This document shows, piece by piece, positions 1 to 63,245 of a stretch of DNA of 64,000 nt. The stretch spans positions 267,163-331,162 of the forward strand of contig NZ_KB905425.1 of the NCBI RefSeq assembly GCF_000379465.1, written 5' to 3'. The translations under genes and the position numbers were made by a program. The DNA comes from Sciscionella marina DSM 45152 (GTDB lineage Bacteria; Actinomycetota; Actinomycetes; Mycobacteriales; Pseudonocardiaceae). How positions within the stretch are numbered: position 1 is the stretch's first letter; every line of letters begins with the position of its first letter. The notes beneath the pieces were generated by a model. It was given only the letters and a program-made list of their open reading frames with translations. It was not told the origin of the DNA and did no database searches.

Positions 1-144
1 CGCCTGCCTGGCCAGCGCCGCACCATTGTCCATTGTGCGCAGCGGGTAGTGGATCGCGATCGAGGTCGGCATCACGCCGAGGTTCGACCGCTCCCAGAGC
101 ACTTCGTAAGCCGCATGGGAGAGGGAAACAGGACCTTTGAGCAC
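1..144 (-). CDS. EspG-like type VII secretion chaperone, 5' part only (cut by window edge)
   Basis: Reading leftward from GTG at 144, the first 48 codons give a start VLKGPVSLSH followed by AAYEVLWERSNLG and SIAIHYPLR. This aligns without gaps to the first residues of the complete EspG-like protein at 2597-3331 (MTRGTMSISH, TAYEVLWERAELG, SIAIHYPLR), which also supports both start codons. EspG proteins are cytosolic chaperones that bind PPE-type substrates of type VII (ESX) secretion. The gene follows the PPE-like gene directly (stop TGA at 148-146, start GTG at 144), so the two are probably translationally coupled. It is the last gene of the left cassette; the rest lies outside the window. 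Confidence 0.8.
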   Translation of the reverse strand, partial: MLKGPVSLSHAAYEVLWERSNLGVMPTSIAIHYPLRTMDNGAALARQA

Positions 145-145
145 A

Positions 146-1465
146 TCAGCCGCCGATCACCGGTGGCGCCGTCGGTGGCAGATCCCCGACGATCTCATCG
201 CCGTGTTCCTCGGTGATCAGGTACGAGGGAGTCTCGTGCTCCTCGTCCTCCTTCTTGTTGCCGCCGCGGCCGCCCATCGGTGCACCGCCCGCACCGCCCC
301 GTCCGGCACCCGCACCGGCGCCACGGCCACCGGCCGCGCCTTCCTCACCGAGCGCACCACCGGAAGCGGCACCCGAACGCGGGCCCGCACCGGACATGCC
401 GCCGCGCCCGAAACCGCCGCCCGAGCCACCGCGCGTCGAGTCGTCGCCCATGCCCCCACCCATTCCGGCGCCCATCCCGGCGCCGCCGAGCGCACCGAGC
501 CCGCCCAGGTCCGAACCACCGCCGGACCGCGAATTCGAGCTGTAGCCCGGAAGGCTCGAATTCCACGAATTGCCGAGCCCCGAATCACCGCCGCTGGACG
601 TGTCCGTCTGACCCGGCAACGGGGCACGCGGGTCACCGCCGCCGATCGGCGGAACATCGGGGGGAATCGAGCCCGGACCACTGGGTCCGTTCGGACCGCC
701 ACCCGGGCCGCCCGGCAACGACGGGCTGTGCCCCGAAGGATCATGACCGCCCGGATGCGGGGGCGCTCCCGGAGTCGGGTTCGTCGAGTACCCCTGACCG
801 CCGTGCTGCCCGCCGCCCGGGCCGCCCGTGCCCGGGTCCACACCGCCGTTGTGCCCGCCACCCGGCGTGCGATTCGGGTTGTAGATCTCCAGATTCGCGA
901 ACGTGTCCACCGGAGGCTGGCCCTGACCCGGCATCGCCCCGGCGAGCGACTGGCTCTGCGAACCGTAACTCTGGAACGTCAGCTTGTTCAGCGAGTTCGC
1001 CTTGTTCCACGAATCCCCGTCGTTCCAAGGATCCGAGTCCTTCCAGAACTGGATCGTGCCGCCCGCCTTGTCCCAGAAACCGGGCGGCTGCTGGGGCATT
1101 TCCTCGAGCTGCCCGGCGTAGGTGGAGAACCCCTCGCCCTGCTGGTCCGTCATGATCTTGTAAGTGGACATGTCACTTTGCCGTTGCGTGACGCGGTCGA
1201 GAAACGGTTTCGCAGCTTGGTGTGCCGCGTCCCCGCCATCGCCTCGGACACCTGACGCGATGGCGCTCTGGTACTTCTTCAGCAGATCGATGACTTCATC
1301 GTGGTTATCGGATACCTGGCCAGCCGCAGATGCTGCGTTGTGAAGGGATTTCGGCCCGTTCACGCCGTTGCGCATCTGATTGAAGATGTCGCCGCCGGTC
1401 GCGTCGTGGCGAATTCCGGTATCAATATTCGTGTTGACCGGACCTTCCGGCTTTTCGCCAGCCAT
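146..1465 (-). CDS. PPE-like, Gly/Pro-rich type VII secretion-associated protein (cassette B)
   Basis: 439 residues. The first ~190 residues are polar and helical, with conserved stretches such as KPFLDR and DPWND. Then comes a long low-complexity Gly/Pro/Ser region, and the protein ends in a conserved tail containing PSYLITEEHGDEIVG and a final PPTAPPVIGG. The tail is shared with the paralogues at 3335 and 60761, although the third has an unrelated-looking N-terminus. The tail holds YLITE, which fits the YxxxD/E pattern of type VII substrates. ATG at 1465 is preferred over ATG at 1480 because GGGGG lies 8 nt upstream of it and the lipoprotein stop is just before. It is probably a secreted or surface substrate served by the downstream EspG. 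The exact family is inferred from context, not from a clear PPE motif. Confidence 0.7.
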   Translation of the reverse strand: MAGEKPEGPVNTNIDTGIRHDATGGDIFNQMRNGVNGPKSLHNAASAAGQVSDNHDEVIDLLKKYQSAIASGVRGDGGDAAHQAAKPFLDRVTQRQSDMSTYKIMTDQQGEGFSTYAGQLEEMPQQPPGFWDKAGGTIQFWKDSDPWNDGDSWNKANSLNKLTFQSYGSQSQSLAGAMPGQGQPPVDTFANLEIYNPNRTPGGGHNGGVDPGTGGPGGGQHGGQGYSTNPTPGAPPHPGGHDPSGHSPSLPGGPGGGPNGPSGPGSIPPDVPPIGGGDPRAPLPGQTDTSSGGDSGLGNSWNSSLPGYSSNSRSGGGSDLGGLGALGGAGMGAGMGGGMGDDSTRGGSGGGFGRGGMSGAGPRSGAASGGALGEEGAAGGRGAGAGAGRGGAGGAPMGGRGGNKKEDEEHETPSYLITEEHGDEIVGDLPPTAPPVIGG

Positions 1466-1466
1466 G

Positions 1467-2096
1467 TCACGAGCCCCCATTCTTCATTGTTTTCGTGGCA
1501 CTCAGTGCTACCTGCTTGACGTCATCGCACGGATTGCCCCCGGGCTGTTCCTGGAGCAGGACGGTGACGGCATCGCGATCATTCATACCGATGTCATAGG
1601 CGCAGATGCCGTTTGACAGTTGGTTCTTGTCGAGGTTTTCCAAGACCGCAGGGAAGCCGTTGACGGGGTCTTGTGGCTCGAACCGGTAAAAGTGGCCTTT
1701 TTGCTTGTTCAGCTTGTACAGATCGCTGAGGCCCCCAGAATTGGGTACGAATACGATATTTACCCGGGTCGCTTCGACGCCGCCGCCCCAAGTGCACTGG
1801 GATCCGGTCGAGGATTGCGGATCAGGCTTGGCTTGGCCCTGGACTCCCAGTGTTTGCAGTTGGTTTGCGGTAAGAGTGGTGCACGGCTGTGCCTTGAACT
1901 TCGATATATCGACCGGGTTGGGGACCTTTGGCGCCCCGTCGTGTGGGAGCGAGGTCTGCCCTCCGCTATTAGCTGAGGATGACGGTGAGTCGCCCGCTCC
2001 GGGCTTACCGACAGTAGGGCTGCTGCAGCTGGTTGCGAAGAGTGTGATGGCCGCGAGGGACACCCCGGCGGCCGCCGTGCGAAGTCGTGCCGTCAT
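1467..2096 (-). CDS. DUF3558-type lipoprotein (cassette B)
   Basis: 209 residues with a lipoprotein signal peptide: MTARLRTAAAG, a hydrophobic stretch, then lipobox FATSC with the lipidated Cys at 24. A Ser/Gly-rich linker is followed by a domain with PVDISKFKAQPCTTLTANQL, a central Cys (SQCTWGG) and a late Cys (GNPCDD), as in actinobacterial DUF3558 lipoproteins. It should be anchored on the outer face of the membrane. Its ATG overlaps the stop of the upstream small gene (ATGA), and its own stop abuts the PPE-like start, so the cassette is an operon. Function is unknown. The paralogues at 4584 and 62068 sit in the same place in their cassettes. Confidence 0.85.
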   Translation of the reverse strand: MTARLRTAAAGVSLAAITLFATSCSSPTVGKPGAGDSPSSSANSGGQTSLPHDGAPKVPNPVDISKFKAQPCTTLTANQLQTLGVQGQAKPDPQSSTGSQCTWGGGVEATRVNIVFVPNSGGLSDLYKLNKQKGHFYRFEPQDPVNGFPAVLENLDKNQLSNGICAYDIGMNDRDAVTVLLQEQPGGNPCDDVKQVALSATKTMKNGGS

Positions 2097-2509
2097 CGCT
2101 GCATCCTACGGAGGTTGTCCGCATTGGCGTGCTCGGTCTCGTGATGATTGTCCAGCGTTGCCTTCAGCTCCTGGTACATGGCGCGAAGGCCGTTGATGTC
2201 CTGCAGGATCTCGGCCCGCTTCTGCTTGCCGACATCGCTCGCGACCTTGGCGAAGCCGTCGCTCGGGTTTTCGTTACCGGGCTTCTGTATGTGATCGAGG
2301 GCAGAGCTGTGGTCGTACGACTCCTGCAGCTTCGAGACCGCCTGGTCCAGGTACGCCAGCGCCTGCCCTGCCTCCGCCGGATCGACGTAGAGCTTCTTGC
2401 CGGAGGCGTGCGGTAGCGGTGCGCCGCCTGGTGGTTGTCCAGGTGGTGCCTGTTGCGCTTGCGGCTTCGGGTCCGCCCCGCCTAGCCGGTGCCCGTCCTG
2501 TGCCGTCAT
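2093..2509 (-). CDS. Small helical type VII-associated protein, first gene of cassette B
   Basis: 138 residues without signal peptide or membrane helix. A Pro/Gln-rich N-terminus (about 1-35) is followed by a predicted helical part with VDPAEAGQALAYLDQAV and LRAMYQELKATLDNHHETE. It is clearly paralogous to the protein at 5177-5593 (VDPVEAGKAITHLDNAI; LQAMRNELSTAMDSYRQTE). Size and helical character recall WXG100/ESX-type partners, but there is no WXG motif. GAGGGGAA precedes the ATG. It starts an operon with the lipoprotein gene (4-nt overlap). A role as secretion partner is inferred from position only. Confidence 0.7.
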   Translation of the reverse strand: MTAQDGHRLGGADPKPQAQQAPPGQPPGGAPLPHASGKKLYVDPAEAGQALAYLDQAVSKLQESYDHSSALDHIQKPGNENPSDGFAKVASDVGKQKRAEILQDINGLRAMYQELKATLDNHHETEHANADNLRRMQR

Positions 2510-2596
2510 ACCGGTTCCCCTCGCTTGTATCGACCATATGCATATTAGCGCCGCGGTTACTCTCGGACAACGCGTTCTGGGCGGTGCAGGCGGTGC

Positions 2597-3331
2597 TCAG
2601 TGCGCGTCATCCGGTCCGACGCACAGCAGGTCAGTGAGGTTCCCACTGGTTCCGGGCGCGGTCGTGACCCAGCCGTTGTCGTTGTGCACGAGCCAGCGTC
2701 CTTCGGATTCGAGGTCGACGATCACGATCGGTTGCCCTACCGGTCGGTATAGGTAACTGAGGCGGCGCCGCGGTCTTCGCATGAGGTGGAGGTAGCTGTC
2801 GGCCTGTGTGGCCACGGTGTTCGGTGGTATCAGGATGCTGCCCGGTTCACCTCGCGGCTGGACATGCCCGTCCTCGGTGAGTTCGTCCTCGTGGAAGATC
2901 AGGGACTGTCCGTGCCCTGGTGGTTCTGCCGGTAGTTCGGCGAGCAGTGTGCGGATCGCTATGTCGATGGGTAACGGGTGTACGTGCAGGTGTTGGTCAT
3001 CGAGTGTGGCGAGGACAGCATCGGGATCATCGATCGCGAGCAGGGAGCCTTCGCCGTGCGGATGGTCTCTGGTGATGATCATGAGTGCGTACCGCCGCGG
3101 TGTACGGGCGAGCTTGCGTAGGGCGGCGATGAGTTCGGGATGCGGTTCGGTGTCTTCGGCGAGGCCGCTCGCGGCGAGTTCGGCGAAGGCTTCGCGGGCG
3201 AGCGCCGCGCCGTTGGCGAGCGTGCGCAGTGGGTAGTGGATCGCGATCGAGGCCGGCATCGCACCCAGTTCGGCCCGTTCCCACAACACCTCGTAGGCGG
3301 TGTGGGAGATCGACATCGTCCCCCGCGTCAT
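2597..3331 (-). CDS. EspG-like type VII secretion chaperone (cassette A)
   Basis: 244 residues. The N-terminal pattern (ISHTAYEVLWERAELGAMP...IHYPLRT) and a later hydrophobic beta/alpha organisation (RRYALMIITRD; SYLHLMRRP) resemble annotated EspG family proteins, soluble chaperones that bind PPE substrates. There is no signal peptide, in keeping with a cytosolic role. The ATG at 3331 follows the PPE-like stop (3335) by three bases and aligns with the GTG start of the truncated paralogue at 144. It is the last gene of cassette A; cassette B starts 87 bp downstream at 2509. Family assignment is by pattern, not by a diagnostic catalytic motif. Confidence 0.75.
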   Translation of the reverse strand: MTRGTMSISHTAYEVLWERAELGAMPASIAIHYPLRTLANGAALAREAFAELAASGLAEDTEPHPELIAALRKLARTPRRYALMIITRDHPHGEGSLLAIDDPDAVLATLDDQHLHVHPLPIDIAIRTLLAELPAEPPGHGQSLIFHEDELTEDGHVQPRGEPGSILIPPNTVATQADSYLHLMRRPRRRLSYLYRPVGQPIVIVDLESEGRWLVHNDNGWVTTAPGTSGNLTDLLCVGPDDAH

Positions 3332-3334
3332 GTG

Positions 3335-4579
3335 TCACTCGCCTATCACCGGGGGAGCGGTCGGTGGCAGTTCGCCGACGATCTCGTTGCCGTGTTCCTC
3401 GGTGACCAGGAACCGAGGCCCCTTGCGTTCCTCCTCGCCCTTCTTGGTGTTGTGACCGGGTGGCGGCGCACCGTTCGTTCCCTCCCGGGTTCGGCTGCCG
3501 ACTTGCTCGCTGGCCGTTCTCGAACCGGCGCGTTGTTGGGAGGCGCCCGAACCGGAACGTGGTCCCGAGCCGGGTGGTCGTGCGGACCGGCCACTTGCTC
3601 CCTTACCCGGTGCCTGTTCGCGGCCGATCTGCCATGTGGTGCCGCCGGGCACACCGGGCGTGGGTTCGGCCGCCGAGGTGTCACCCGCGTACTGCACTCC
3701 CGGGCTGCGTGGTTCCCGCAGGCCGCCGATGCCTTGCTGGTTACTGCCTGCCGTGTTCAGTTCACCGGGCCTGGGTCCGCCGCCGTGTTCGTGCGCGCCG
3801 TCGGGATCGGGCCGGTCCTTGCCGGATTCAGGTGCTTCGGGTTCCCGTATGCGGTCGTCCGGGGTGGAGGTTCGGGATTCGGGTACGGCAGTGTGGCCGG
3901 ATGGTTCGGCTCCGCGCGGGTCCGGGATGCGGCGAGGCTCGTATCCTCCTCGCGCGAGGAGCGGCGCATCCTGGTGTTCGCCGCCGCTTGCCGTCCGCTT
4001 CGGGTTGTAGATCTCCAGATTCGCGAACGCGTTCACCGGCGCGGGGCTTTCTCCAGGCAGGGCACCGGCGAGCACCTGGCTCTGCGCGCCGTAATTCCGG
4101 AACGCCAGCCTGTTCCCGGCATCCGCGGTCAACCACGCGGTGCTGTCGTTCCATGGATCGTTGTCCCGCCAGAATGCCATCGAAGTCTCCAGCGTGGCGA
4201 CGAAACCCGGTTGTTCCCTCGGCATCTCCTTGAGCTGACCGGCTTGGAACTCGAACCCCTCGGCCTGACTGGTCGTCGTCTGCTGGAAGGAGTCCAGGTC
4301 CTCCCGATGCCGCGCCAGCCGGTCGAGGAACGGCTTCGCGGCCCGATGAGCGGCATCGCCCGCCGCGCCACGGATCCCGGCGGCTATTGCGTTCTGGCAT
4401 CTTCGGAGGTGATCTTCAACCTTGCTTACTTTCCTGCTGGTTTCCGATGCTGAAGCCGCTGCATAGTGTAGAGAATTTGTTCCGGGAACGTTATTTCGCA
4501 TAGAATCGAAAATATCTGATCCGCTCATGTTTTTTGGCGAGCCAGTGCCCATTCCCGAATCGGCGGTTTTCGTTGGCAC
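3335..4579 (-). CDS. PPE-like, Pro/Gly-rich type VII secretion-associated protein (cassette A)
   Basis: 414 residues, paralogue of the protein at 146-1465. Shared blocks include DIFDSMRNNVPG, AKPFLDRL, DNDPWND, FANLEIYNP and the conserved end PRFLVTEEHGNEIVGELPP followed by TAPPVIGE. The tail has FLVTE where the other two copies have YLITE, so the aromatic of the YxxxE-like motif is Phe here. Residues about 190-380 are disordered and rich in Pro, Arg, Glu and Gly, more charged than the glycine-rich copy B. The start is GTG at 4579 with GGGGGG seven bases upstream and the lipoprotein stop four bases before. It is a likely substrate of the following EspG-like chaperone. Confidence 0.7.
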   Translation of the reverse strand: MPTKTADSGMGTGSPKNMSGSDIFDSMRNNVPGTNSLHYAAASASETSRKVSKVEDHLRRCQNAIAAGIRGAAGDAAHRAAKPFLDRLARHREDLDSFQQTTTSQAEGFEFQAGQLKEMPREQPGFVATLETSMAFWRDNDPWNDSTAWLTADAGNRLAFRNYGAQSQVLAGALPGESPAPVNAFANLEIYNPKRTASGGEHQDAPLLARGGYEPRRIPDPRGAEPSGHTAVPESRTSTPDDRIREPEAPESGKDRPDPDGAHEHGGGPRPGELNTAGSNQQGIGGLREPRSPGVQYAGDTSAAEPTPGVPGGTTWQIGREQAPGKGASGRSARPPGSGPRSGSGASQQRAGSRTASEQVGSRTREGTNGAPPPGHNTKKGEEERKGPRFLVTEEHGNEIVGELPPTAPPVIGE

Positions 4580-4583
4580 GTTT

Positions 4584-5174
4584 CTACCCCCCGTACTTTA
4601 TGGTTTTCGTAACACCTTTGGTGACGTTCTTTGCATCACGACAAGGACGACTATCCGGACCTTCCACTGCTAGTACTGAAATGGCATCGTGATCGTTCAT
4701 TCCGGTCTGATAGGAGCAGCCCCCTTGCTTCTCTTGGCTGGAGTCGAGGTTTCCAAGGATGGTTGGGAATCCGTTGATCGGTGGCTGCGGTTCGAATCGG
4801 GAGAATCGATTTCTGATCGAATAAAGATCGCTGAGACCTTTGGAGTTCGGAATAAAGTTGACGTCGATACTGATCCCGTGTGGGCCTTTCCAGACGCACT
4901 TCGAGCCGGAGGGGGTGTTTGGTCTCGATTTACCTGGAGGATTGAGCTGTAGGATGTGGAGCTGACTGATGGTCAAGGTCGTGCATGGTGCGGCCTTGAA
5001 TTTCGATACGTCGACCGGACTTTCCACCTTGGGGGCGCCATGTTGTGGCAAAGACTGCATGTTTCTTGCTGGTGAGGCGGTATTGGGAGGTTGTTCGGGG
5101 GTCCCGCTGCAGGCCGCGGCGACAATGGCCATGACGCCACAGGTCAGCATCGTTGTTGCTCTTCGTCGCCGCAC
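4584..5174 (-). CDS. DUF3558-type lipoprotein (cassette A)
   Basis: 196 residues with a lipoprotein signal: MRRRRATTMLT, a hydrophobic core, then VAAAC with Cys22. The mature part contains SPVDVSKFKAAPCTTLT, KCVWKGP, a GLSDLY segment shared with the other copies, and a late RPCRDAK. This matches the DUF3558 lipoprotein pattern with paired cysteines. The start is GTG at 5174, two bases after the stop of the small upstream gene. The coding sequence is visibly richer in A/T codons than neighbouring housekeeping genes, consistent with acquisition or relaxed evolution. Probably surface-exposed; function unknown. Confidence 0.82.
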   Translation of the reverse strand: MRRRRATTMLTCGVMAIVAAACSGTPEQPPNTASPARNMQSLPQHGAPKVESPVDVSKFKAAPCTTLTISQLHILQLNPPGKSRPNTPSGSKCVWKGPHGISIDVNFIPNSKGLSDLYSIRNRFSRFEPQPPINGFPTILGNLDSSQEKQGGCSYQTGMNDHDAISVLAVEGPDSRPCRDAKNVTKGVTKTIKYGG

Positions 5175-5176
5175 TG

Positions 5177-5593
5177 TTATCTCCCGGGCTTGCGAAGATC
5201 GTCGGTGTTCGCTTGTTCGGTCTGCCGGTAGCTGTCCATCGCCGTGGACAGCTCATTGCGCATGGCCTGAAGTCCGCGTACATCCTCCAGAAGTTCAGTA
5301 CGTTTCTGGGTGCCGACGCGGGCGGCTGTAGTGCTGAATCCAGCACTTGCGCCTTCTTTTCCCGGGCCGACTGTAAGCGACATGTCGTAGGAATCCAGGT
5401 ATGCCTCTTCGAGCGCATCGATGGCGTTGTCCAGGTGCGTGATCGCTTTGCCCGCCTCGACCGGATCGATGTGCAGCGCCGGGCCCACGGCATGGGGCTC
5501 CGCTATCGGCTGCTTGCCAGGCGGGGGATCGGATTTGCTCGGTGGTTTCGTGCTCTCGCCTACCGGTCCGCCCACGTCTTCGTCGTGCGCCAT
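5177..5593 (-). CDS. Small helical type VII-associated protein, first gene of cassette A
   Basis: 138 residues, the same length as its paralogue at 2093-2509. A Pro-rich N-terminus (1-45) precedes a helical region with HIDPVEAGKAITHLDNAIDAL and a C-terminal helix with NELSTAMDSYRQTEQAN. No signal peptide or membrane segment is seen. It opens the operon that continues through the lipoprotein, PPE-like and EspG-like genes; all junctions are within a few bases. Upstream lies an AT-rich 250-bp stretch with a 24-bp palindrome. No function is recognised; it may be a small partner of the PPE-like protein. Confidence 0.7.
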   Translation of the reverse strand: MAHDEDVGGPVGESTKPPSKSDPPPGKQPIAEPHAVGPALHIDPVEAGKAITHLDNAIDALEEAYLDSYDMSLTVGPGKEGASAGFSTTAARVGTQKRTELLEDVRGLQAMRNELSTAMDSYRQTEQANTDDLRKPGR

Positions 5594-5670
5594 CTCAAGC
5601 CCTCCCCTCGAGCTTCAGACTTGGCAGGCTAACACCCGCCGTCATCGTATGTGAACAGTGCGAATTGCAA

Positions 5671-5694
5671 AAATAATGGCCGTATCCATTATTT
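5671..5694. promoter_or_regulatory. 24-bp palindrome in the AT-rich region before cassette A
   Basis: AAATAATGG and CCATTATTT form perfect 9-bp arms around CCGTAT. It lies 78 bp upstream of the first gene of cassette A, in the most AT-rich stretch of the left end (about 5640-5820). Position and symmetry suit an operator for a dimeric repressor; a role as terminator for the convergent side is less likely, since the gene at 5847 reads away on the same strand. The regulator is unknown. Confidence 0.4.
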
Positions 5695-5846
5695 GTGCAG
5701 GTGAAATACATCTCATCGAAGGTGTATCGATTAGATATCGAAGCGATTTGCATTTTGCCTTTTTCCCGGCACGGGAGTCAGCATATCCGAATGATGTCTA
5801 TACATCAAACAGGATAGTGCGACGTTCCGCCGTCCGTGTGACGGGG

Positions 5847-6626
5847 TCAGCGGGCGAGGTGCAGTTTGGTGTACAGCAGTGCTTCGGCGAGGTTGGTGGT
5901 GCGCTCGGCGTCGCTGCGGTCGGTGCGGGTGCTGACCTCGATGATCACGGATCCCTGGAAGCCGGTCTCGCTGAGTGTGTCGAGGAGTTCGCCGCAGGGC
6001 TGGGTGCCTCGTCCGGGGATGAGGTGTTCGTCGCGGGGGAGCCCGGTGCCGTCGGCGAGGTGGACGTGGCGCAGTCCGGTACCCATGCGGGCGGCGAGTT
6101 CGAGGGCGTTCATCCCGGCCGCGGCGGTGTGTGAGAGGTCGAGGGTGTAGTCGGCGTACCCGACGTCGGTGGGGTCGATGGAGGGATGGAATGCGTGCAC
6201 GGCGACATTGCGCAGTGGTTTGGCGGGGAACATGTTCTCGACGGCGATGGCGATTCCGGTGCGCTCGCTGAGTTCGGCGACGAGTTCGGGGAATCGTTTG
6301 GCGTAGCGGCGTTGCCAGACGAACGGCGGATGTACGACGACGGTGGGGCAGTCGAGCTCGGCGGCGAGTTCGACGGATCGGCGCAGCCGCACGGTGGGGT
6401 CGGGAGACCAGACGCGCTGGGTGATCAGCAGTGAGGGGGAGTGCAGGGAGAGCACGGGCATGCCGTAGCCGCGCAGGTATCGGCGCAGTGTGGTGCTGTC
6501 CTGGCTGTCCTGGTCTCCCCAGACCATCACCTCGACCCCGTCGTACCCGAGCTCCGCGGCGTACCGGAACCCCGCTTCGGCCCGACGTGGCCAGACCGAT
6601 GCGGTGGACAGGCCGATTGGGATCAC
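5847..6626 (-). CDS. Sugar phosphate isomerase/epimerase-like TIM-barrel protein (Rv0498-type)
   Basis: 259 residues of the xylose-isomerase-like TIM-barrel family (AP endonuclease 2 superfamily). Typical pieces are IGLSTASVWP at the start, GYDGVEVMVWG, VVVHPPFVW, IAVENMFP (metal-ligand Glu region), DLSHTAAAG, HVHLADGTG and SVIIEVSTR. The metal-binding Glu/His/Asp set appears retained, so a metal-dependent isomerase or endonuclease-type activity is plausible, but the substrate is unknown. It follows the membrane protein gene by six bases and, two genes on, ppx, the same order as Rv0496-Rv0497-Rv0498 in M. tuberculosis. Confidence 0.8.
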   Translation of the reverse strand: MIPIGLSTASVWPRRAEAGFRYAAELGYDGVEVMVWGDQDSQDSTTLRRYLRGYGMPVLSLHSPSLLITQRVWSPDPTVRLRRSVELAAELDCPTVVVHPPFVWQRRYAKRFPELVAELSERTGIAIAVENMFPAKPLRNVAVHAFHPSIDPTDVGYADYTLDLSHTAAAGMNALELAARMGTGLRHVHLADGTGLPRDEHLIPGRGTQPCGELLDTLSETGFQGSVIIEVSTRTDRSDAERTTNLAEALLYTKLHLAR

Positions 6627-47315: not shown

Positions 47316-49154
47316 ATGAGACGCGTGAATTCCTTCCCCGAACAGGTACGCACGACCCGTGAGCAGTTGGTGAATTTCCTCGCCGACTGCGATCCCGAGG
47401 CCGCCACCTGGGTACGTGGCGTACACGAGGCGCGCCGGAGTACGCCGTCGGTCGTCGTGGTCGGTGAGACGAACAGGGGCAAGAGTTCCCTGGTGAACGC
47501 CCTGCTGGCGAGCCCCGGCCTGTCTCCGGTGGACGCCGAGGTGGCCACCGCGACCTATCTGGTGTTCGGCTACGGCGAGGCGATGGCCACCAGGGCCTGC
47601 TATCCGCAGCGCGAACCGGTGGCCTTTCCGCCCGAGCAGCTGCTGAACTGGGCATCCGCCGCGCACGAGCTGCCGGACGGGGAACTGCCACCGCGCTATG
47701 TCGAGGTGGACGCGCCGATTCCGCTGCTCGAACGGCTGCAGCTGGTGGACACCCCGGGCGTCGGCGGGCTCGATTCCCTGCACGGCGAGCTGGCCACCGA
47801 GGCCGCGGCCTCGGCGACCGCGCTGTTGTTCGTCGTGGACGCCTCCGGACCGCTCACCAGTGGGGAACTCGGTTTCCTGCGCAAGGTGGCGGACAGTGTG
47901 GAGACGGTGCTGTTCGCACTGACCAAGACCGATTCGCACCGCGGGTACCGCCAGGTCGCCGAGGCCAATAAAGAACTGCTCGCCGAGCACGCGCCCCGGT
48001 TCGCGAACGTGCCGATGTATCCGGTGTCCGCGCGGATGTTCGACATGGCCGCGACTGCCCCGAACGAACAGGCGGCGCGGGTGCTGCGGGAACGGTCCGG
48101 GATCCCGGATCTGCAGCAGCGGCTGCAGGAACAGGTCGCGGGCCGGGCGGCCATGCTCGCCGAGGCGAACACCCTGCGCGCGCTGACCACGGCGTTCAAT
48201 GGTTTGCGCGCCGAGCTCGAATCCCGGCACCGCGCCCTTTCCACCGGCGAGGACGAGATCGCCACGCTGCGCGAACGCCGCGATGAACTCACCACGCAGC
48301 GCCGTTCCTCAACCCGCGGGTACCAGGTCAAACTGCGCGCGGAGATCCAGCGCGCGCGGATCGAGGGGACCCACGATGTCGGGCGGCAGATGCGCGAGCT
48401 GACCACGTGGTTCCGTGGTGCCATCGACTCGGCGAACCGGGAACGGCTCGCCCAGCTGCCCGCCGAGGTCGACTCGGCCATGCAACTGGTGTCCGGGCGG
48501 ATCAGCCAATCGCTTGCGGAGCGGCTGACCAGGGCCACCGAGACCACGCTCGCCGAGGTGTTCTCCGACGGCGAGCTGCAGGTGCTGCGCGCCGAGTTCG
48601 CCAAGCAGCAGCGCCCGTTCCTCGAACTGCGCCCGCCGGAGAAGCGCGCGGGAACCGCGGAGGACAAGCTCATGGTGTCCATGGGCGTCTACTCCGGGTT
48701 CGGCGTCGCGCGGATGGCCACATCCTTCGCGCCCGGGGTGCTCGGACTCGGCGCGGCCGCGCTCAATCCGTTCCTGCTGCCGGTCACGATCGTGGTCGGG
48801 CTCGGCGCCGGGGTGTGGATGGCGCGCACCCGCAAGCACCAGGCGGAGAAGACGCACATGAAGACCTGGCTCACCGAGGCCATCGCGGAGGCCCGCAGCA
48901 CACTCGATCAGCTGGTCTCCGAGCAGATCATCTCCGCGGAGTCCCAGCTCTCGCTCGCGCTCGACGAGGCACTCGGGCAGCGCATCGAGGCCATCGAGGC
49001 GGAGATCAAGAGCGTGGACAAGACGCTCAAACTGGAGACGGCCGAACGCAACACCCAGTTACAGCGGATTACCAGACAGTTACAGGAACTGAGCACGGGC
49101 GAGGGACAGCTGGGGAACCTGCTCGCGCGGATTCGCGACCTGCGGGATCGTTGA
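47316..49154 (+). CDS. Dynamin-like GTPase (IniA-type)
   Basis: 612 residues. GTPase domain about 40-230 with VVVGETNRGKSSLVNALL (P-loop), LQLVDTPGVGGLDS (G3) and ALTKTDSH (G4). Long helical stalk with coiled-coil stretches (EDEIATLRERRDELTTQRRSS; SVDKTLKLETAERNTQLQRITRQLQEL). A hydrophobic hairpin at about 465-510 (ATSFAPGVLGLGAAALNPFLLPVTIVVGLGAG) should insert into the membrane, as the paddle of IniA does. Third gene of the operon, 35 bp after the GrpE-like gene. Confidence 0.85.
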   Translation: MRRVNSFPEQVRTTREQLVNFLADCDPEAATWVRGVHEARRSTPSVVVVGETNRGKSSLVNALLASPGLSPVDAEVATATYLVFGYGEAMATRACYPQREPVAFPPEQLLNWASAAHELPDGELPPRYVEVDAPIPLLERLQLVDTPGVGGLDSLHGELATEAAASATALLFVVDASGPLTSGELGFLRKVADSVETVLFALTKTDSHRGYRQVAEANKELLAEHAPRFANVPMYPVSARMFDMAATAPNEQAARVLRERSGIPDLQQRLQEQVAGRAAMLAEANTLRALTTAFNGLRAELESRHRALSTGEDEIATLRERRDELTTQRRSSTRGYQVKLRAEIQRARIEGTHDVGRQMRELTTWFRGAIDSANRERLAQLPAEVDSAMQLVSGRISQSLAERLTRATETTLAEVFSDGELQVLRAEFAKQQRPFLELRPPEKRAGTAEDKLMVSMGVYSGFGVARMATSFAPGVLGLGAAALNPFLLPVTIVVGLGAGVWMARTRKHQAEKTHMKTWLTEAIAEARSTLDQLVSEQIISAESQLSLALDEALGQRIEAIEAEIKSVDKTLKLETAERNTQLQRITRQLQELSTGEGQLGNLLARIRDLRDR

Positions 49155-56020: not shown

Positions 56021-56665
56021 TTACCGCAGTAGTTCGGTTGTCGAGGTACGCGTCCACGACTCGAGCAGCCTGCCCTCAGCGGCGATCTGATGCTCGGGCC
56101 CGACGATGCAGGAATCCCCGGACGCGTGCGCCCAGCTGGTCTGCGCCGGATCGTCGATGAACGAGAACCCGGTGAGCAGCAGCTTGGCTTCAGGGTAGGT
56201 GGTGCGGGCGATCCAGGCCGCCATGGTGCCGGTCGTGGCCCAGGTCGACTCGGTACGCGAGGGGAGCCCGAGCGCATCGGAGAGCGGGAGGGTCACCTCG
56301 TAATTGGAGACGTGCACCTGGCCGAGGTCGGCGGGCCACCAGCCGGGCAGGGTCTCCGGTTCCCAGTGCAGCCTGCCCGGTTCCACGAGCAGGTAACACC
56401 GCCTCGGGTAATCGGCGAACACCCACGGGGTCGCGCGCAGGGCCCGGTTGAACACCACGGCGTGCACCCGCGTTCCGGTGCTCGGTTCGCCGGGCTCGTC
56501 GAGCTTGAACCCGTTGACCCGGATGACCAGCTCACAGGCGTCCACCGCGGCCGCGCGCGCCGGATCGGCGCCGAGCGGCTGGTTACCGACGACGGCGACC
56601 GTCGACGGATTCGGCCGGTCGGCGTAGGCATCGAGAAGTTCACGCAATAGTGGGGTGGTCGCCAC
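56021..56665 (-). CDS. Glycosyltransferase family 29 (sialyltransferase)-like protein
   Basis: 214 residues. The N-terminal strand-loop VAVVGNQPLGADPARAAAVDACELVIRVNGF matches the sialylmotif L pattern (VVGN ... ID ... VIR.N), and TWATTGTMAAWIA plus LLLTGFSFIDD resemble the motif S/bacterial GT29 region. No signal peptide or membrane helix. Bacterial GT29-like proteins occur in polysaccharide clusters; here the gene is divergent from the galactan exporter. The sugar donor cannot be inferred, and CMP-sialic acid should not be assumed. Confidence 0.65.
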   Translation of the reverse strand: MATTPLLRELLDAYADRPNPSTVAVVGNQPLGADPARAAAVDACELVIRVNGFKLDEPGEPSTGTRVHAVVFNRALRATPWVFADYPRRCYLLVEPGRLHWEPETLPGWWPADLGQVHVSNYEVTLPLSDALGLPSRTESTWATTGTMAAWIARTTYPEAKLLLTGFSFIDDPAQTSWAHASGDSCIVGPEHQIAAEGRLLESWTRTSTTELLR

Positions 56666-56834
56666 GCCGACATGCTACTCAGACAACGGATGCCCGCCAC
56701 CACCACACACGCTGACCCGGGGCAGGTCCTCACACCGATCACACGCCTGGCCAAGGTTGCGTGCGAGTGAGCGAGAAAATGCATACCGCCCCAGACACGC
56801 ACCCCGGAAATGCACGCCGGTACCCTCGGCGATC

Positions 56835-57776
56835 GTGCAAGCCACCGTCGAGGAGAAGCGGGCCGCCGCGTTCGCCGAATCGTCCCCGCGTAGTCTCACC
56901 CGCGCGTTCGCGGACCTGCGTGACGGGTTCGCCGCACGCGAGCTGTGGAGCCATCTCGGCTGGCAGGACATCAAGCAGCGATATCGCCGCTCGGTGCTCG
57001 GGCCGTTCTGGATCACCATCAGCCAGGCGGTCATCGCGCTCGGCCTCGGTCTGCTCTACGGCGTGCTGTTCGGGCAGAACTTCCAGACGTTCCTGCCCTA
57101 CGTGCTCACCGGGCTGATCACCTGGACGTTCATCCAGAACTGCCTGACCGAGGGCATGGAGACGTTCATCGCGAACGAGGGGCTGATCAAGCACCTACCC
57201 GCGCCGATCTCTATCTACACGCTGCGTACGGTGTGGCGGCAGTTCCTGATGTTCGCGCACAACGCGATCGTGTACGTGGTCGTGGTGGGGATCTTCTTCG
57301 TCAACCTGAGCCAGCCGTACGCGACCAGTGATCAGGACGGCATCTGCCGGCCGGGCCTGACCTGTCACCCCGGACTGAGCTGGCAGTGGCTCCTCGGTCT
57401 CCCGGGTTTCATCCTGGTCATCCTCAACATGGCCTGGATAACGATGTTCTTCGGGATCATCTCCACCCGATTCCGGGACTTCCCGCAGCTGATCAACGCG
57501 ATCGTGCAGCTGATGTTCTACCTGACCCCGATCGTCTGGCCGATCGACCAGCTGACCTCGCCCGCGGGACCGCGGCACAACCTGGCGCACATCGTGCTGC
57601 CGATCATCAAGCTCAACCCGATCTACCACTTGATCCAGGTCGTGCGAGCCCCGTTCATCGGTCAGGTGGTCAGTCCGTGGAGCTACGTGGTCTGCGGCGG
57701 AATGGCCATCGTAGGCTGGTTTGTCACCGTGTTCATGATGCGTAACTACCGCGCCCGAATCTCCTACTGGGTGTGA
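56835..57776 (+). CDS. wzm: Polysaccharide ABC transporter permease (galactan export, Rv3783-type)
   Basis: 313 residues from GTG at 56835. TACCCT ends eight bases before the GTG, so the mRNA may be leaderless. The protein has the Wzm/RfbD layout: amphipathic start (LWSHLGWQDIKQRYRRSVLGPFW), then six membrane helices (VIALGLGLLYGVLFG; YVLTGLITWTFIQ; FAHNAIVYVVVVGIFFV; a further pair; and SYVVCGGMAIVGWFVTVFMM). With the ATPase and GlfT1 genes behind, it should flip lipid-linked galactan precursor for arabinogalactan across the membrane. Confidence 0.9.
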   Translation: MQATVEEKRAAAFAESSPRSLTRAFADLRDGFAARELWSHLGWQDIKQRYRRSVLGPFWITISQAVIALGLGLLYGVLFGQNFQTFLPYVLTGLITWTFIQNCLTEGMETFIANEGLIKHLPAPISIYTLRTVWRQFLMFAHNAIVYVVVVGIFFVNLSQPYATSDQDGICRPGLTCHPGLSWQWLLGLPGFILVILNMAWITMFFGIISTRFRDFPQLINAIVQLMFYLTPIVWPIDQLTSPAGPRHNLAHIVLPIIKLNPIYHLIQVVRAPFIGQVVSPWSYVVCGGMAIVGWFVTVFMMRNYRARISYWV

Positions 57777-57785
57777 GGTGAGGTA

Positions 57786-58661: not shown

Positions 58662-58676
58662 ATGGAGGTGCCCGCG

Positions 58677-59606: not shown

Positions 59607-59708
59607 GCACAGTTTCAGAAAATAAACGCGGTTTCCGTAAATAGGAAACAATTCAGCTCTGCGCGAAAACTATTGCCGGTCAGGCGGTTCGGGTGATGAT
59701 CTGGGTGC

Positions 59709-59960
59709 ATGGCGGAAAATCGACACGCACTCGTACTGCACCTCGCCGGTGTAGCCGAGCCCATGCTGATCGAGCTGGGTGAGGAATTATCCGGCGAACT
59801 GCCGGATAAATTGGCCGCGAAATTGCTCGCCGGAGAGATCGAGGCCATCACGGCCGCGAACGGTGCGCGCATCGTGGTCAATTTCTCTCATGTCGTCGCC
59901 GCGCACGTGGATATCGCGCCACCGCTCGGGCAGATCTACGGCTCGCCCTCACGGCGTTAG
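59709..59960 (+). CDS. Small conserved-looking protein of unknown function
   Basis: 83 residues: MAENRHALVLHLAGVAEPMLIEL, an acidic helix (GEELSGELPDKLAAKLLAGEIEAI) and a strand-rich end (GARIVVNFSHVVAAHVDI). No signal or membrane segment. About 100 bp after glfT1 and overlapping the convergent EspG-like gene by four bases. Coding is supported by a continuous frame and balanced residues but I do not recognise a family. Confidence 0.5.
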   Translation: MAENRHALVLHLAGVAEPMLIELGEELSGELPDKLAAKLLAGEIEAITAANGARIVVNFSHVVAAHVDIAPPLGQIYGSPSRR

Positions 59961-60712
59961 CTCGTGAGTTGTTCGTGCATCGCGTGCAGCCGGCGGGTGA
60001 AGTCCTCCCGGGGCAGCGGCGCACAGAACACGTGGCGGCTGGCGCCCCGGTACTCGGTGCTGCGCGACCAGCGGCCGAGGTCGGTGTCCACATAGACGAG
60101 CGGCTCCTCGGTGCGTCGGGCACGTCCGAGGGCATCGCGCAGTTCGAGCACGATCTGCCCGCCGCCGACCTGCTCGCGTGCCATGAGCTCGTCCCAGAGC
60201 TGGTGTGACCAGCCCGTTGTCGAGTGCGCGCTGCGCAGGTAGCCCGATGGTCCGGCCCGCTCGTCGTGGAACGGCACGGAGAACGGTTTGAAGCGGGCGG
60301 GCGGATGCGCGGGCAGCGCGGCGACCAGGGCCTCCGGAAGCCGGGAGAAGTGGGTCTGGCGCAGCGTGATGGTCCCGTCCTCGCGGACCGCAACGATCGC
60401 CTCCTTGGCACGTGCACAGGCGAGGACGTAACGGACTTCCTCGTGCACGTGGATCATCGCTACATAGCTGGTTTCCGGATGCGCCAAGCAGCGGAGGCTG
60501 TCCTCGAACTCGCGGTCGAGCACGCCCGCTCGCTCGTAGATGGGCAGCGCGGCGGTCTCCGGGTCGAGCACCCGGTTTTCCTCGGCCTGTTCGGCGTCGG
60601 TGAGCCAGAGTGCGCTCGGCGCGAGCCCGAACGGCAGCTCGCCGAGCCCGGATCTGCGCAGTACGCGCTCGAGGGCCTTCTCCGACATGGAGAGGTCACC
60701 CGGCAGCGCCAT
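59957..60712 (-). CDS. EspG-like type VII secretion chaperone (cassette C)
   Basis: 251 residues from ATG at 60712; a start at MSEKALERVL eight residues later is also possible. EKALERVLRRSGLGELPFGL and RAGVLDREFEDSLRCLAHPETSYVAMIHV follow the EspG family pattern, and the C-terminus (HVFCAPLPREDFTRRLHAMHEQL) is typical of longer EspG-like proteins. It is the last gene of the third cassette and is more divergent from the two left copies than those are from each other. Cytosolic chaperone for the adjacent PPE-like product. Confidence 0.8.
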   Translation of the reverse strand: MALPGDLSMSEKALERVLRRSGLGELPFGLAPSALWLTDAEQAEENRVLDPETAALPIYERAGVLDREFEDSLRCLAHPETSYVAMIHVHEEVRYVLACARAKEAIVAVREDGTITLRQTHFSRLPEALVAALPAHPPARFKPFSVPFHDERAGPSGYLRSAHSTTGWSHQLWDELMAREQVGGGQIVLELRDALGRARRTEEPLVYVDTDLGRWSRSTEYRGASRHVFCAPLPREDFTRRLHAMHEQLTS

Positions 60713-60760: not shown

Positions 60761-62053
60761 TCACTCGCCGAGGACCGGGGGCACGGTCGGCGGGAGTTCG
60801 CCGACGATCTGGTCCCCGTGTTCCTCGGTGATCAGGTACGAGGGCGTCTGGTGCTCCTCGTCCTCCTTCTTCCCGCCTGCGCCACCGCCCATCGGCATCC
60901 CGCTGCCGGTGCCGCGCCCGCCGGTGCCGGTGGACGCGGCGCGCGCAGCGGCCTGTTCCGCAGCCGCACCGGCACTCGCGCCGGACTTCGGCCCCGCACC
61001 GGGGCCACCGCCTGAACCGCTCGAACCTCCCGAGCCGGAGCCCGCGCCGCCGAAGCCGCGCGCGGAACCGCCGAAGCCACGCCCGGAGCCGGCCGAGTCC
61101 TCGCCGCCGAGCCCACCGCCGAAGCCGCTGAGCCCACCGAGTGGCACACCCCCGCCTCCGCTGTAGCCACCGGCTCCCGTGTAACCGCCGCCCCCGCCGG
61201 GGAAGCCACCGCCGTAATTGCTCGGCGAATACGGCACATCGCCGCCCCCGATCGAGCTCGGGTCCAGCCGTCCTGGCTGCCTACCCGGTCCGCTCGGATA
61301 GTGCCCGGGATCGGTGTTCCCCGGACCGGGCCCGGAACCACCACCGTGCCCCGGTCCCGGTGTGGAACCGCCGCCACCGCCGGGATTCGGTGGAGCGTCG
61401 TTGTGTCCTCCGCCGCCACCGGAGCCACCACTGCCGCTCTTGTGGCTGCCGCCACCGCCGCCGCCGCCGCTCGGGCCGGAGTACCGGTAGCCACTGCCAC
61501 CGCCGCCCGCCGGGGTGCGCGCGCCTCCGCCGCCACTGTCCCCGCTGCCGCCGGAGCCGCCCGGCTGCTGTTCCGCGATCGGCGGCATGTTCACGTTCGC
61601 CCGGGAAGCGTTGACGTAGTTCGTGTACGCCTCGACGTTCTTCCGGTTCGCCTCCTCGTGCGCCGCCTGCTTGCGCACCACATCGATGGCGGCGAACGGG
61701 TTCAGTCCCGCGGTCGCACCGGTGATCTCCGCCGGGGTCGGTGCGGGCGGAATGTCGACGACGGAACTCTTCACCCGTCCCGCCGCCTCCATCTGATTGC
61801 TCAACATCGTCTGGGCAGCCGCCATCTTGCCGCCGGACTGCTGATAGCGCACCGCGAACCGGGCCGCGAGCGACTTCGCGGAATCGGCGGCCGCCCCGGA
61901 CCACCCCTGCAGATTCTGCGTCTGCCTGGCGATCTCCACCGAACGATCCGGCCAGATATCGGTGAGTTTCTGGCCGCCCTGATGCGCCGGATCCAGCTTG
62001 CTCACATCCGTCGGGGAAAGCTGGGTGTAGATCTGTTTCCCGTCCATGCTCAC
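60761..62053 (-). CDS. PPE-like, extremely Gly-rich type VII secretion-associated protein (cassette C)
   Basis: 430 residues from GTG at 62053. The N-terminal ~165 residues are helical and contain LQGWSGAAADSAKSLAARF, a WxG-containing turn like that of WXG100/PPE proteins, and PPAPTPAEITG. Residues about 165-390 are Gly/Ser/Tyr repeats. The end HQTPSYLITEEHGDQIVG followed by ELPPTVPPVLGE is almost identical to the tails of the two left-hand paralogues although the N-terminus is not. The tail contains YLITE (YxxxE). Secreted or surface-exposed substrate is likely. Confidence 0.72.
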   Translation of the reverse strand: MSMDGKQIYTQLSPTDVSKLDPAHQGGQKLTDIWPDRSVEIARQTQNLQGWSGAAADSAKSLAARFAVRYQQSGGKMAAAQTMLSNQMEAAGRVKSSVVDIPPAPTPAEITGATAGLNPFAAIDVVRKQAAHEEANRKNVEAYTNYVNASRANVNMPPIAEQQPGGSGGSGDSGGGGARTPAGGGGSGYRYSGPSGGGGGGGSHKSGSGGSGGGGGHNDAPPNPGGGGGSTPGPGHGGGSGPGPGNTDPGHYPSGPGRQPGRLDPSSIGGGDVPYSPSNYGGGFPGGGGGYTGAGGYSGGGGVPLGGLSGFGGGLGGEDSAGSGRGFGGSARGFGGAGSGSGGSSGSGGGPGAGPKSGASAGAAAEQAAARAASTGTGGRGTGSGMPMGGGAGGKKEDEEHQTPSYLITEEHGDQIVGELPPTVPPVLGE

Positions 62054-62067: not shown

Positions 62068-62712
62068 TTATCTCTGCAGTTTCAGATTGGAAATGACCAT
62101 GCCCGCGGCCTGCTTGTCCTTCTCACAAGCTGCGTTCTTGTCCATGTCATACCCGCTGCCGAAGTTGAGCATCACATTGAGGTGGTCGGTAACGCCGAGA
62201 TAGGCGATGCACGTACCACTGTGTCCATTGTCGTCCCTGCGGTCGACGATGACAGCGGGGTATCCCTCGACGGCTAGGGGTTCCCAGGTCTTCTCTTTTT
62301 CCTTCTGCCGGTAGATATCGCTGAGCCCGTTCGGATTAGCCATGCCGAAGTTGATGCCGAGGGTTATGTCTGAATTGCCACTGTCGTCGTAATCGCAGCT
62401 GACCATGAGGCCGTTCGCGACTGGTTCCTTGGCGATGTGGGGCTGTTCGATGCCGAGCTGCTTGGCCTGGTTGGCGTTGAGGATCTTGCAGATCTGGTCC
62501 TTGCTGAGGAATGGTCTCGCATTGAGCGGTTTGGGTACCGGTGGTGCGAGCAGCTTCTGGGGCGTGTCTGAGGCCGGGGCACCGCTGGAGGGGTGCTCGC
62601 TCGTGTTCGCTTCCGGGTTGGGCTTGCCCTCGGTGGGTGCGCCCCCGCAGGCGGCGAGCGTGGCCGTGAGGACGAGAACCGGCACCAGCCCGAGTGGCTT
62701 ACGGGTGTTCAC
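62068..62712 (-). CDS. DUF3558-type lipoprotein (cassette C)
   Basis: 214 residues with signal MNTRKPLGLVPVLVLTATLAAC, lipobox LAAC with Cys22. The mature domain has NARPFLSKDQICKILNANQAKQLGI, LMVSCDYDD, GLSDIYRQKEK (shared with copies A and B) and GTCIAYLG. Its ATG overlaps the stop of the upstream helical gene (ATGA) and the PPE-like gene starts 14 bp after its stop. Membrane-anchored on the outer face; role unknown. Confidence 0.85.
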   Translation of the reverse strand: MNTRKPLGLVPVLVLTATLAACGGAPTEGKPNPEANTSEHPSSGAPASDTPQKLLAPPVPKPLNARPFLSKDQICKILNANQAKQLGIEQPHIAKEPVANGLMVSCDYDDSGNSDITLGINFGMANPNGLSDIYRQKEKEKTWEPLAVEGYPAVIVDRRDDNGHSGTCIAYLGVTDHLNVMLNFGSGYDMDKNAACEKDKQAAGMVISNLKLQR

Positions 62713-63245
62713 AGCCGCCCCTGAAAATCCTTGAACGACACCTGTGCGGAATCCTCCTGGTTGGCATAGGACTTGATCACCGCATCGAGGTGATCACGGT
62801 ACTGTCGCAGCTCGTCGTGTGTCTTATTGACCTCGTCGAGGAGGTCCTGGCCCCACTGGCCGAGCTTGTCCGCATACATCACGCTGCCGTCCGCGTCCTG
62901 CGCGGTGGGCTGTGCTTGAGCGATCCGCTTAGCAGGTTCGATGTCTTGCTGTGCCGCATCCACCATCATGTCCACCTGCTGGCGGTACTTCTTCAGCTCG
63001 CCGAGGCTGCACGTGAGCTGGCCAGCCCCGCCGCCGCCCGGTGAATCGGCCTGGGTTTCGGCCCAGCCGCTGATCTGCTGGTGGTAGGCCTTGTCCACGG
63101 TGTCCATCACCATGCCGTAGACCTGCACCATGGCCGGCGCGTTCTGCGAGTAGTGCAGATGCGTCTGGGTGTACGGGTTGTCCTCCCCGCCGCCAGATGG
63201 CCCCTGGATTTCCGGGCCACTCGTGACCGGCTCGTTCCCCGCCAT
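62709..63245 (-). CDS. Helical type VII-associated protein, first gene of cassette C
   Basis: 178 residues, no signal peptide. Helical throughout: NAPAMVQVYGMVMDTVDKAYHQQISGWAE, LGELKKYRQQVDMMVDAAQQDIEPAKRIAQAQP and LDEVNKTHDELRQYRDHLDAVIKSYANQED. It occupies the same first position as the 138-residue proteins of cassettes A and B and resembles them only in helical design near the C-terminus. Could be a WXG100-like partner. Operon start; the preceding 160 bp separate it from glfT2. Confidence 0.68.
   Translation of the reverse strand: MAGNEPVTSGPEIQGPSGGGEDNPYTQTHLHYSQNAPAMVQVYGMVMDTVDKAYHQQISGWAETQADSPGGGGAGQLTCSLGELKKYRQQVDMMVDAAQQDIEPAKRIAQAQPTAQDADGSVMYADKLGQWGQDLLDEVNKTHDELRQYRDHLDAVIKSYANQEDSAQVSFKDFQGRL

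What the first reader, a model, noticed from the sequence alone, without database searches (positions are those of the whole stretch)
1..5593. Tandem type VII-associated cassettes, with a third copy 55 kb away
The order small helical protein, DUF3558 lipoprotein, PPE-like Gly/Pro-rich protein, EspG-like chaperone occurs twice in tandem here and once at 59957-63245, always on the minus strand with overlapping or abutting genes. No ESX membrane core genes are nearby. Pairing an outer-face lipoprotein with a chaperone and a low-complexity substrate suggests a modular secretion or surface-display unit that borrows a core from elsewhere. I know of no described role for this four-gene unit.
Basis: partly seen in the sequence, partly recalled or inferred. 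Interest (0 to 1): 0.75.

Follow-up and report, generated by a model that had tools for sequence, protein, structure and literature searches.

The report
PE/PPE-like substrate cassettes with lipoprotein
The three gene groups look like portable substrate packages for a type VII protein-secretion machine, each pairing a PE/PPE-like substrate with its own EspG chaperone and a lipoprotein of unknown role; the secretion core itself lies elsewhere in the genome.

Summary
Each unit is PE-like – DUF3558 lipoprotein – PPE-like – EspG. The "small helical protein" is PE-like: a profile of 42 has PE25 as top PDB hit; 26 of 42 match Pfam PE. The PPE-like N-domain has the PPE fold (nine best fold hits). The genome has 11 EspG but one EccB, in a core at an ESX-4-type ribosomal locus, so "borrows a core from elsewhere" is supported; secretion is untested. 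In eight complete genomes of other genera, 51 of 86 EspG hits have DUF3558 within 4 kb (1.46 at random). EspG, DUF3558 and PPE-like trees agree beyond within-genome shuffles (0 of 1000). In four Mycobacterium-like genomes 0 of 15 EspG are linked. PPE-like proteins share a C-terminal tail (…VAPPVIGE) also found on most core-encoded PPE-like proteins detected. My searches found no paper describing the unit. New against the mycobacterial model: many EspG per core, a linked lipoprotein, a shared tail. The lipoprotein's role is inferred, not shown.

The parts
5177..5593 (-). cassette 1, PE-like partner (138 aa)
   Evidence: member of A7: profile of 42 hits PE25; 26 of 42 match Pfam PE; alone no Pfam match
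5207..5230 (-). cassette 1 motif YRQTEQAN (YxxxE..N)
   Evidence: read from translation; family count
4584..5174 (-). cassette 1, DUF3558 lipoprotein
   Evidence: PF12079 61.6 bits, cut-off 34.1; invariant cysteines
3335..4579 (-). cassette 1, PPE-like substrate
   Evidence: member of A8: profile hits PPE4/PPE41; weak Pfam PPE alone
3338..3412 (-). cassette 1 PPE-like C-terminal tail FLVTEEHGNEIVGELPPTAPPVIGE
2597..3331 (-). cassette 1, EspG chaperone
   Evidence: PF14011 113.1 bits, cut-off 27
2093..2509 (-). cassette 2, PE-like partner
   Evidence: member of A6 and A7; alone no Pfam match
2123..2146 (-). cassette 2 motif HHETEHAN (Y replaced by H)
   Evidence: counted as a miss
1467..2096 (-). 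cassette 2, DUF3558 lipoprotein
   Evidence: PF12079 77.7 bits; AlphaFold2 model mean pLDDT 80.5
146..1480 (-). cassette 2, PPE-like substrate
   Evidence: AlphaFold2 N-domain; nine best PDB fold hits are PPE41/PPE4/PPE15
149..223 (-). cassette 2 PPE-like tail YLITEEHGDEIVGDLPPTAPPVIGG
1..144 (-). cassette 2, EspG, first 48 codons; rest outside the window
   Evidence: PF14011 126.6 bits on the genome; L016
62709..63245 (-). cassette 3, PE-like partner (178 aa)
   Evidence: member of A6 and A7
62754..62768 (-). cassette 3 motif YANQE
   Evidence: read from translation
62068..62712 (-). cassette 3, DUF3558 lipoprotein
   Evidence: PF12079 69.4 bits
60761..62053 (-). cassette 3, PPE-like substrate with W-x-G (WSG)
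   Evidence: A8 genome search E 3.9e-28 (it is a member of A8); no Pfam PPE match alone
60764..60838 (-). cassette 3 PPE-like tail YLITEEHGDQIVGELPPTVPPVLGE
59957..60712 (-). cassette 3, EspG chaperone
   Evidence: PF14011 123.7 bits

Best explanation
Each cassette is a substrate module for the genome's single detected ESX core. The PE-like and PPE-like proteins form one folded heterodimer. The cassette's own EspG caps the PPE-like tip in the cytosol and keeps the pair soluble. The PE-like YxxxD/E-type signal, and probably the shared PPE-like tail, bring it to the core at the ESX-4-type ribosomal locus. DUF3558, exported by Sec and lipid-anchored on the outer face of the membrane, acts after translocation, most likely holding or assembling the exported pair at the cell surface, with the Gly/Pro-rich stretch as spacer. 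Shown by sequence, structure prediction or genomics: protein relationships, linkage, co-inheritance, one EccB-bearing core. Inferred: complex formation, export, display, and above all the role of DUF3558.
For: PE-like, PPE-like and EspG identities. PE-type motif 48 of 62 versus shuffle mean 15.5, max 25 of 500. 11 EspG and one EccB hit in this genome; no EspG or DUF3558 hit in 21 core regions of 17-20 kb. 401 EspG against 64 EccB hits in 40 genomes of 40 genera; of 22 genomes with exactly one EccB hit (fragments and divergent ones counted), 21 have 3-17 EspG. DUF3558 linkage: 51 of 86 EspG hits versus 1.46 at random, 54 of 55 pairs on one strand. Trees congruent, r 0.79-0.82, 0 of 1000 within-genome shuffles as high. 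Tail in 77 of 88 ORFs upstream of EspG versus 16 of 182 other ORFs. Lipobox in 63 of 67 DUF3558; a membrane-like stretch in only 5 of 67 PPE-like and 3 of 54 PE-like proteins. PE-like and DUF3558 genes duplicated as a block in Streptoalloteichus hindustanus (L112).
Against: No secretion or binding data. DUF3558 is absent from 6 of 11 EspG loci here by Pfam, and the PurD-linked cassette lacks it in this genome while other genera keep it, so it is dispensable for some pairs. In 4 of 51 pairs, DUF3558 lies downstream of EspG, not between the substrates. Cassette 2 has H for Y in the PE-type motif; 14 of 62 picked small ORFs lack the motif, some because the pick is another gene. Tree congruence can come from linkage alone. 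The tail is seen in 66 of 67 cassettes with DUF3558 but 11 of 21 ORFs upstream of EspG without it, yet also on a pair with neither EspG nor DUF3558 nearby (L131). Single window PE-like and PPE-like proteins score below Pfam cut-offs. The core's own small partner has no Pfam match and its PPE-like protein matches WXG100 just below cut-off, not PPE.
Confidence: 0.6

Rival explanations
1. Known PE-PPE-EspG export, with DUF3558 only a co-transcribed envelope lipoprotein that has no contact with the pair.
For: DUF3558 hits without a nearby EspG are common (97 of 150 listed in eight genomes); some cassettes lack DUF3558.
Against: 51 of 86 EspG linked; in 62 cassettes with a picked small ORF DUF3558 lies between or just beside PE-like and PPE-like genes, though in 4 of 51 pairs it is downstream of EspG; DUF3558 tree tracks EspG (r 0.82); cassette and lone copies cluster apart (12 changes versus 29.2 shuffled, 0 of 500 as low; near-copies help such clustering).
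Confidence: 0.25
2. DUF3558 works before or during translocation as an outer-face docking factor or extracytoplasmic chaperone for the core, not as a display anchor.
For: The predicted fold has weak hits to small chaperone and immunity proteins (EagT6/SciW, Tsi3; E about 0.06-0.1, TM below 0.5).
Against: The fold hits are weak and the list holds unrelated proteins; some cassettes have no DUF3558; none is near the 21 cores.
Confidence: 0.2
3. Toxin module: the PPE-like protein is the toxin, DUF3558 the immunity protein.
For: Lipoprotein immunity proteins exist in other T7SS (recalled); Tsi3 is among the weak fold hits.
Against: The window PPE-likes end in a low-complexity stretch and a conserved tail, and Pfam shows no toxin domain in them; some PPE-like genes have no DUF3558 beside them.
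Confidence: 0.05
4. The cassettes are decaying remnants without function.
For: An orphan EspG lies between AccA-like and GlpD-like genes (L013), and C1:848 holds cassette fragments.
Against: Window cassettes are intact and kept in the sister genome (EspG 88% for cassette 1, 90% for cassette 3); EspG hits in 38 of 40 genera.
Confidence: 0.03

Closest known systems
Mycobacterial PE-PPE-EspG modules (PE25-PPE41-EspG5, PE5-PPE4-EspG3)
   Same: PE-like and PPE-like helical domains, EspG family chaperone, YxxxD/E-type motif on the PE-like protein
   Different: Many EspG per core instead of one per ESX system (per-system role: PMC5311947, passages); DUF3558 lipoprotein in the unit; Gly/Pro stretch plus conserved tail; no EspG in the 21 core regions looked at
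ESX-4 / ESX-4EVOL loci (PMC4791881, passages read)
   Same: Core beside ribosomal genes (mycobacterial position recalled); the paper describes ESX-4-related clusters with eccE, espG, pe and ppe in Nocardia and others
   Different: Here PE/PPE-like genes are in the core but EspG is in scattered cassettes; the word lipoprotein does not occur in that paper
EspB-EspK and LXG-Lap-EsaE systems (PMC11217815, passages read)
   Same: Helical substrate, small helical partner in LXG systems, EspG-like chaperone
   Different: Other substrate families; the word lipoprotein does not occur in that paper
LprB/LprC-type DUF3558 lipoproteins of mycobacteria (names and family recalled)
   Same: DUF3558 domain
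   Different: DUF3558 hits of four Mycobacterium-like genomes are not within 4 kb of their 15 EspG hits; the seven I put in the tree lie with one G089 pair outside the cassette clades

Membership tests
PE family | PE domain by profile | tested here: met
   A7 top PDB hits are PE25, E 1.8e-4; 26 of 42 match PF00934, best 1.4e-8; window proteins alone: no match
PE family | YxxxD/E after helix 2 | tested here: met
   48 of 62 in the last 50 residues; cassettes 1 and 3 yes, cassette 2 has H for Y
PPE family | PPE domain by profile and fold | tested here: met
   33 of 37 match PF00823, best 1.2e-16; PPE4 E 3.3e-13; nine best fold hits PPE41/4/15, probability 1.00, but E 0.016-0.12
PPE family | N-terminal Pro-Pro-Glu motif | tested here: not met
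   not seen in the three window N-termini; hence called PPE-like
EspG family | PF14011 above cut-off | tested here: met
   A3 (relatives) hits EspG3
EspG family | binding to PPE tip | not testable with these tools
   no complex prediction offered
DUF3558 (PF12079) | Pfam cut-off, lipobox | tested here: met
   lipobox in 63 of 67 cassette copies
ESX-4 core | EccB, EccC, EccD, MycP beside rplM/rpsI and the rpoA block | tested here: met
   L023 and L132; EccB by Pfam, the other genes read by eye; mycobacterial order recalled. EccE and PE/PPE-like genes are extra
T7SS substrate | core-dependent export | not testable with these tools
   needs an eccC mutant

The most novel reading that the evidence does not exclude
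Here EspG is substrate-dedicated, not system-dedicated. One ESX-4-type core serves a swappable set of PE/PPE-like cassettes through a shared C-terminal tail that works as a universal core address or surface anchor, and DUF3558 is the outer-face partner that fixes each exported pair to the envelope: a modular surface-display device in actinomycetes thought to lack the mycolic-acid outer membrane (recalled, not tested).
Probability: 0.22. Interest if true: 0.75.

Novelty: new variant of a known kind. Interest (0 to 1): 0.55.

Why it matters
In mycobacteria EspG sorts substrates between ESX systems (PMC5311947, passages read). Here 21 of 22 genomes with a single EccB hit carry 3-17 EspG hits, which sorting between systems does not easily explain. 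That makes the question of what EspG specificity is for testable outside pathogens. The DUF3558 link gives a context for a lipoprotein family on which the one paper found was unrelated, and the conserved tail is a concrete candidate for a second export or anchoring signal.

Tried and rejected
Rejected: DUF3558 as chance neighbour. YxxxE in the PPE-like tail as the general signal: the tails of cassettes 2 and 3 read YLITE, but many relatives do not fit YxxxD/E there. Tail as DUF3558- or EspG-specific handle: L014, L131 and core PPE-like proteins carry it without one or both. Core tails: 12 of 21 core regions gave a PPE-like hit; 8 of those 12 tails have PPV[ILV], three are looser, L106 does not fit. 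PDB sequence search with DUF3558: two weak unrelated hits alone, none with the profile. Window EspG alone: no PDB sequence hit. DUF3558 fold: only weak hits, TM below 0.5; not used as proof. Promoter scan of 1-5850: one weak site upstream of cassette 1, no more than in shuffles; no terminator-like site. Weak chance-like family hits of the window proteins (for example ribonucleotide reductase on the cassette 3 PPE-like protein, below cut-off) were set aside.

Limits of counts. A7 used 38 of 51 printed relatives plus three window proteins and L022; before that, eight loci whose picked small ORF did not look PE-like were left out. A8 used 33 of 64 printed plus three window proteins and L022. The 62 picks were made without the motif and keep wrong picks; 5 of 67 cassettes gave no pick. 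The cassette set came from the best-scoring 150 listed hits, so it favours strong hits; one search is less biased (150 of 152 DUF3558 hits and all 86 EspG hits). Mirror trees used 64 of 67 cassettes. In one search at most 16 candidates per genome were scored, so 16 EspG for G089 is a ceiling of the search. A looser profile of mine places a DUF3558-like ORF beside the C8 EspG (L019), which Pfam does not list.
Full report
What is there. The window holds three four-gene units on the minus strand. Pfam gives DUF3558 above cut-off in all three and EspG above cut-off in cassette 1; the genome search gives EspG above cut-off for all three, including cassette 2, whose EspG is cut by the window edge. 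The sister genome G001 has the same tandem and the third unit. Junctions overlap or are close; cassettes 1 and 2 are 87 nt apart. EspG of cassettes 1 and 2 are 57% identical, cassette 3 is 23% identical to cassette 1.

The small protein is PE-like. A profile of 42 such proteins finds PE25 as the best PDB sequences (E 1.8e-4), with its Y...E..N aligned to the family motif, then EspB (0.0075) and PE5 (0.013). 26 of 42 match Pfam PE, best 1.4e-8; cassette 2 alone matches nothing. In 62 cassettes whose small ORF was chosen without the motif, 48 have Y...[DE] in the last 50 residues; shuffles give 15.5, at most 25. Cassettes 1 and 3 have it; cassette 2 has H for Y.

The PPE-like protein has the PPE domain. 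A profile of 37 N-terminal regions finds PPE4 (3.3e-13) and PPE41 (7e-9); 33 of 37 match Pfam PPE, best 1.2e-16. The AlphaFold2 model of the cassette 2 N-domain is of moderate quality (mean pLDDT 64). Its nine best PDB fold matches are PPE41, PPE4 and PPE15, probability 1.00, target TM 0.63-0.76, though E is only 0.016-0.12. The Pro-Pro-Glu motif is not at the window N-termini, so I call it PPE-like. After a Gly/Pro-rich stretch (G+P 23-36% of the three window proteins) comes a conserved tail. In relatives it reads roughly EED.EH…YL.E..D(I/V)(F/W/Y)GD…VAPPVIGE. A loose form is in the last 45 residues of 77 of 88 ORFs upstream of EspG and 16 of 182 other coding-like ORFs; by class 66 of 67 with DUF3558 and 11 of 21 without, the latter including ORFs that are not PPE-like.

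DUF3558. 63 of 67 cassette copies have a lipobox after a hydrophobic stretch; four cysteines besides the lipobox one are invariant in 13 aligned copies. The model is confident from about residue 50 but matches the PDB only weakly. In 100 copies (65 cassette, 35 lone ones that I chose), the labels need 12 changes on the tree against 29.2 when shuffled, 0 of 500 as low; lone copies lie both outside and within cassette clades.

Genome and family context. The genome has 11 EspG, 12 DUF3558 and 1 EccB hits. Of ten strong PPE-like hits, nine have an EspG and five a DUF3558 within 4 kb; two EspG have no PPE-like hit nearby. The core (L023) has EccC, EccD, MycP, a PPE-like gene, a small partner, EccB and EccE beside ribosomal genes, with an Esx-like pair, rplM, rpsI and glmM next to it (L132; genes other than EccB named by eye). 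This is the ESX-4 position of mycobacteria (recalled). The core PPE-like protein matches WXG100 just below cut-off and its small partner matches nothing in Pfam; the A8 profile finds the former at 3.8e-7. In 40 genomes of 40 genera of the family, 38 have EspG, 39 DUF3558 and 39 EccB hits. G038 has none of the three; G005 has only a divergent EccB (212.6 bits), weaker DUF3558 hits and no EspG. No EspG or DUF3558 hit was found in 21 core regions.

Linkage is not chance. In eight complete genomes 51 of 86 EspG hits have DUF3558 within 4 kb; random placement gives 1.46, at most 8 in 1000 trials; 54 of 55 pairs share the strand, and EspG lies downstream in 53. In the wider list of 51 pairs, EspG is downstream in 47 and upstream in 4. 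The order of PE-like and DUF3558 genes swaps (38 PE-DUF3558-PPE, 24 DUF3558-PE-PPE picks), and in Streptoalloteichus hindustanus the two are duplicated together (L112). Distances of EspG, DUF3558 and PPE-like N-domains correlate at 0.79-0.82 over 64 cassettes of 28 genomes; swapping partners within genomes gives means of 0.44-0.57 and never the observed value in 1000 trials. This shows inheritance as a unit; it does not show contact.

Range. In 149 genomes across the phylum, EspG is above cut-off in 6: this one and five of one other family of the same order. The fifth (G089, Nocardia-like by guess) has 7 of 16, 16 being the most that search scored. Named loci with DUF3558, PPE-like and EspG genes are from Longimycelium, Streptoalloteichus and Gandjariella (8 of 9 loci; L115 starts inside DUF3558); the Lentzea locus has PE-like, PPE-like and EspG without DUF3558. 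G011 and G018 share contig sizes with the Longimycelium and Gandjariella records, and one search lists Streptoalloteichus under Pseudonocardiaceae; that the family of the window is Pseudonocardiaceae follows from this and from recall.

Loss events. Between AccA-like and GlpD-like genes this genome keeps only EspG, whereas several other genera (for example L032, L044, L045) have a DUF3558-PE-PPE-EspG unit there; after PurD it keeps PE-PPE-EspG without DUF3558, which L058, L069 and L073 retain (neighbours partly named by eye). DUF3558 is thus common but not indispensable.

Mechanism. Shown: what the four proteins are related to, that they travel together, and that one EccB-bearing core is present. 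Inferred from mycobacteria: PE-PPE heterodimer, EspG on the PPE tip, PE signal read by the core (PMC5311947 and PMC11217815, passages read). Inferred by me: DUF3558 acts after export at the membrane's outer face, and the tail is a general address or anchor, since core-encoded PPE-like proteins and an EspG-less pair also carry it.

Literature. Searches for DUF3558 with EspG gave 0 papers, DUF3558 alone one unrelated paper; EspG with Amycolatopsis one unrelated listing; T7SS with Pseudonocardia 6; EspG with Nocardia and PPE 8. Wider sets listed 25 of 233, 3 of 3, 20 of 37 and, for LprB/LprC, 10 of 14. No title or abstract start in these listings describes the unit. Passages were read of PMC11217815, PMC4791881, PMC12802301, PMC11004387 and PMC5311947; in PMC7028111 the six terms sought had no occurrence. 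Most subscription papers are not in that library, so absence here is not proof.

Noticed in passing
window 56655-63999 and L017: Cassette 3 sits beside galactan-type genes: two GlfT2-like genes (Pfam) on its own strand just upstream, 166 nt from the nearer one, and ABC-transporter genes plus a GlfT1-like gene (by eye) on the other side.
   Followed up: partly
L013 (G000:C13:663941-664657): Orphan EspG between a biotin carboxylase-like gene and a GlpD-like gene, where several other genera have a fuller cassette.
   Followed up: partly
L131 3129-5098 (G000:C24): PE-like/PPE-like pair with the tail but no EspG or DUF3558 hit nearby; best PPE-like score in the genome.
   Followed up: partly
L026 (G000:C1:848418-849142): Pieces of a cassette (DUF3558, short PPE-like and EspG pieces): apparent decay.
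   Followed up: no
G024:C1:3740990-3746025: Six DUF3558 hits in tandem on one strand.
   Followed up: no
L132 1381-4352: 864-aa protein with a 126-aa neighbour near the ESX core, a possible further substrate pair without the PPVIG tail.
   Followed up: no
L109 (G005): Ribosomal-locus core with divergent EccB and no PPE-like hit, in a genome without EspG hits: a core without the cassette system.
   Followed up: partly
window 47316-49154: Dynamin-family GTPase gene, 612 aa.
   Followed up: no
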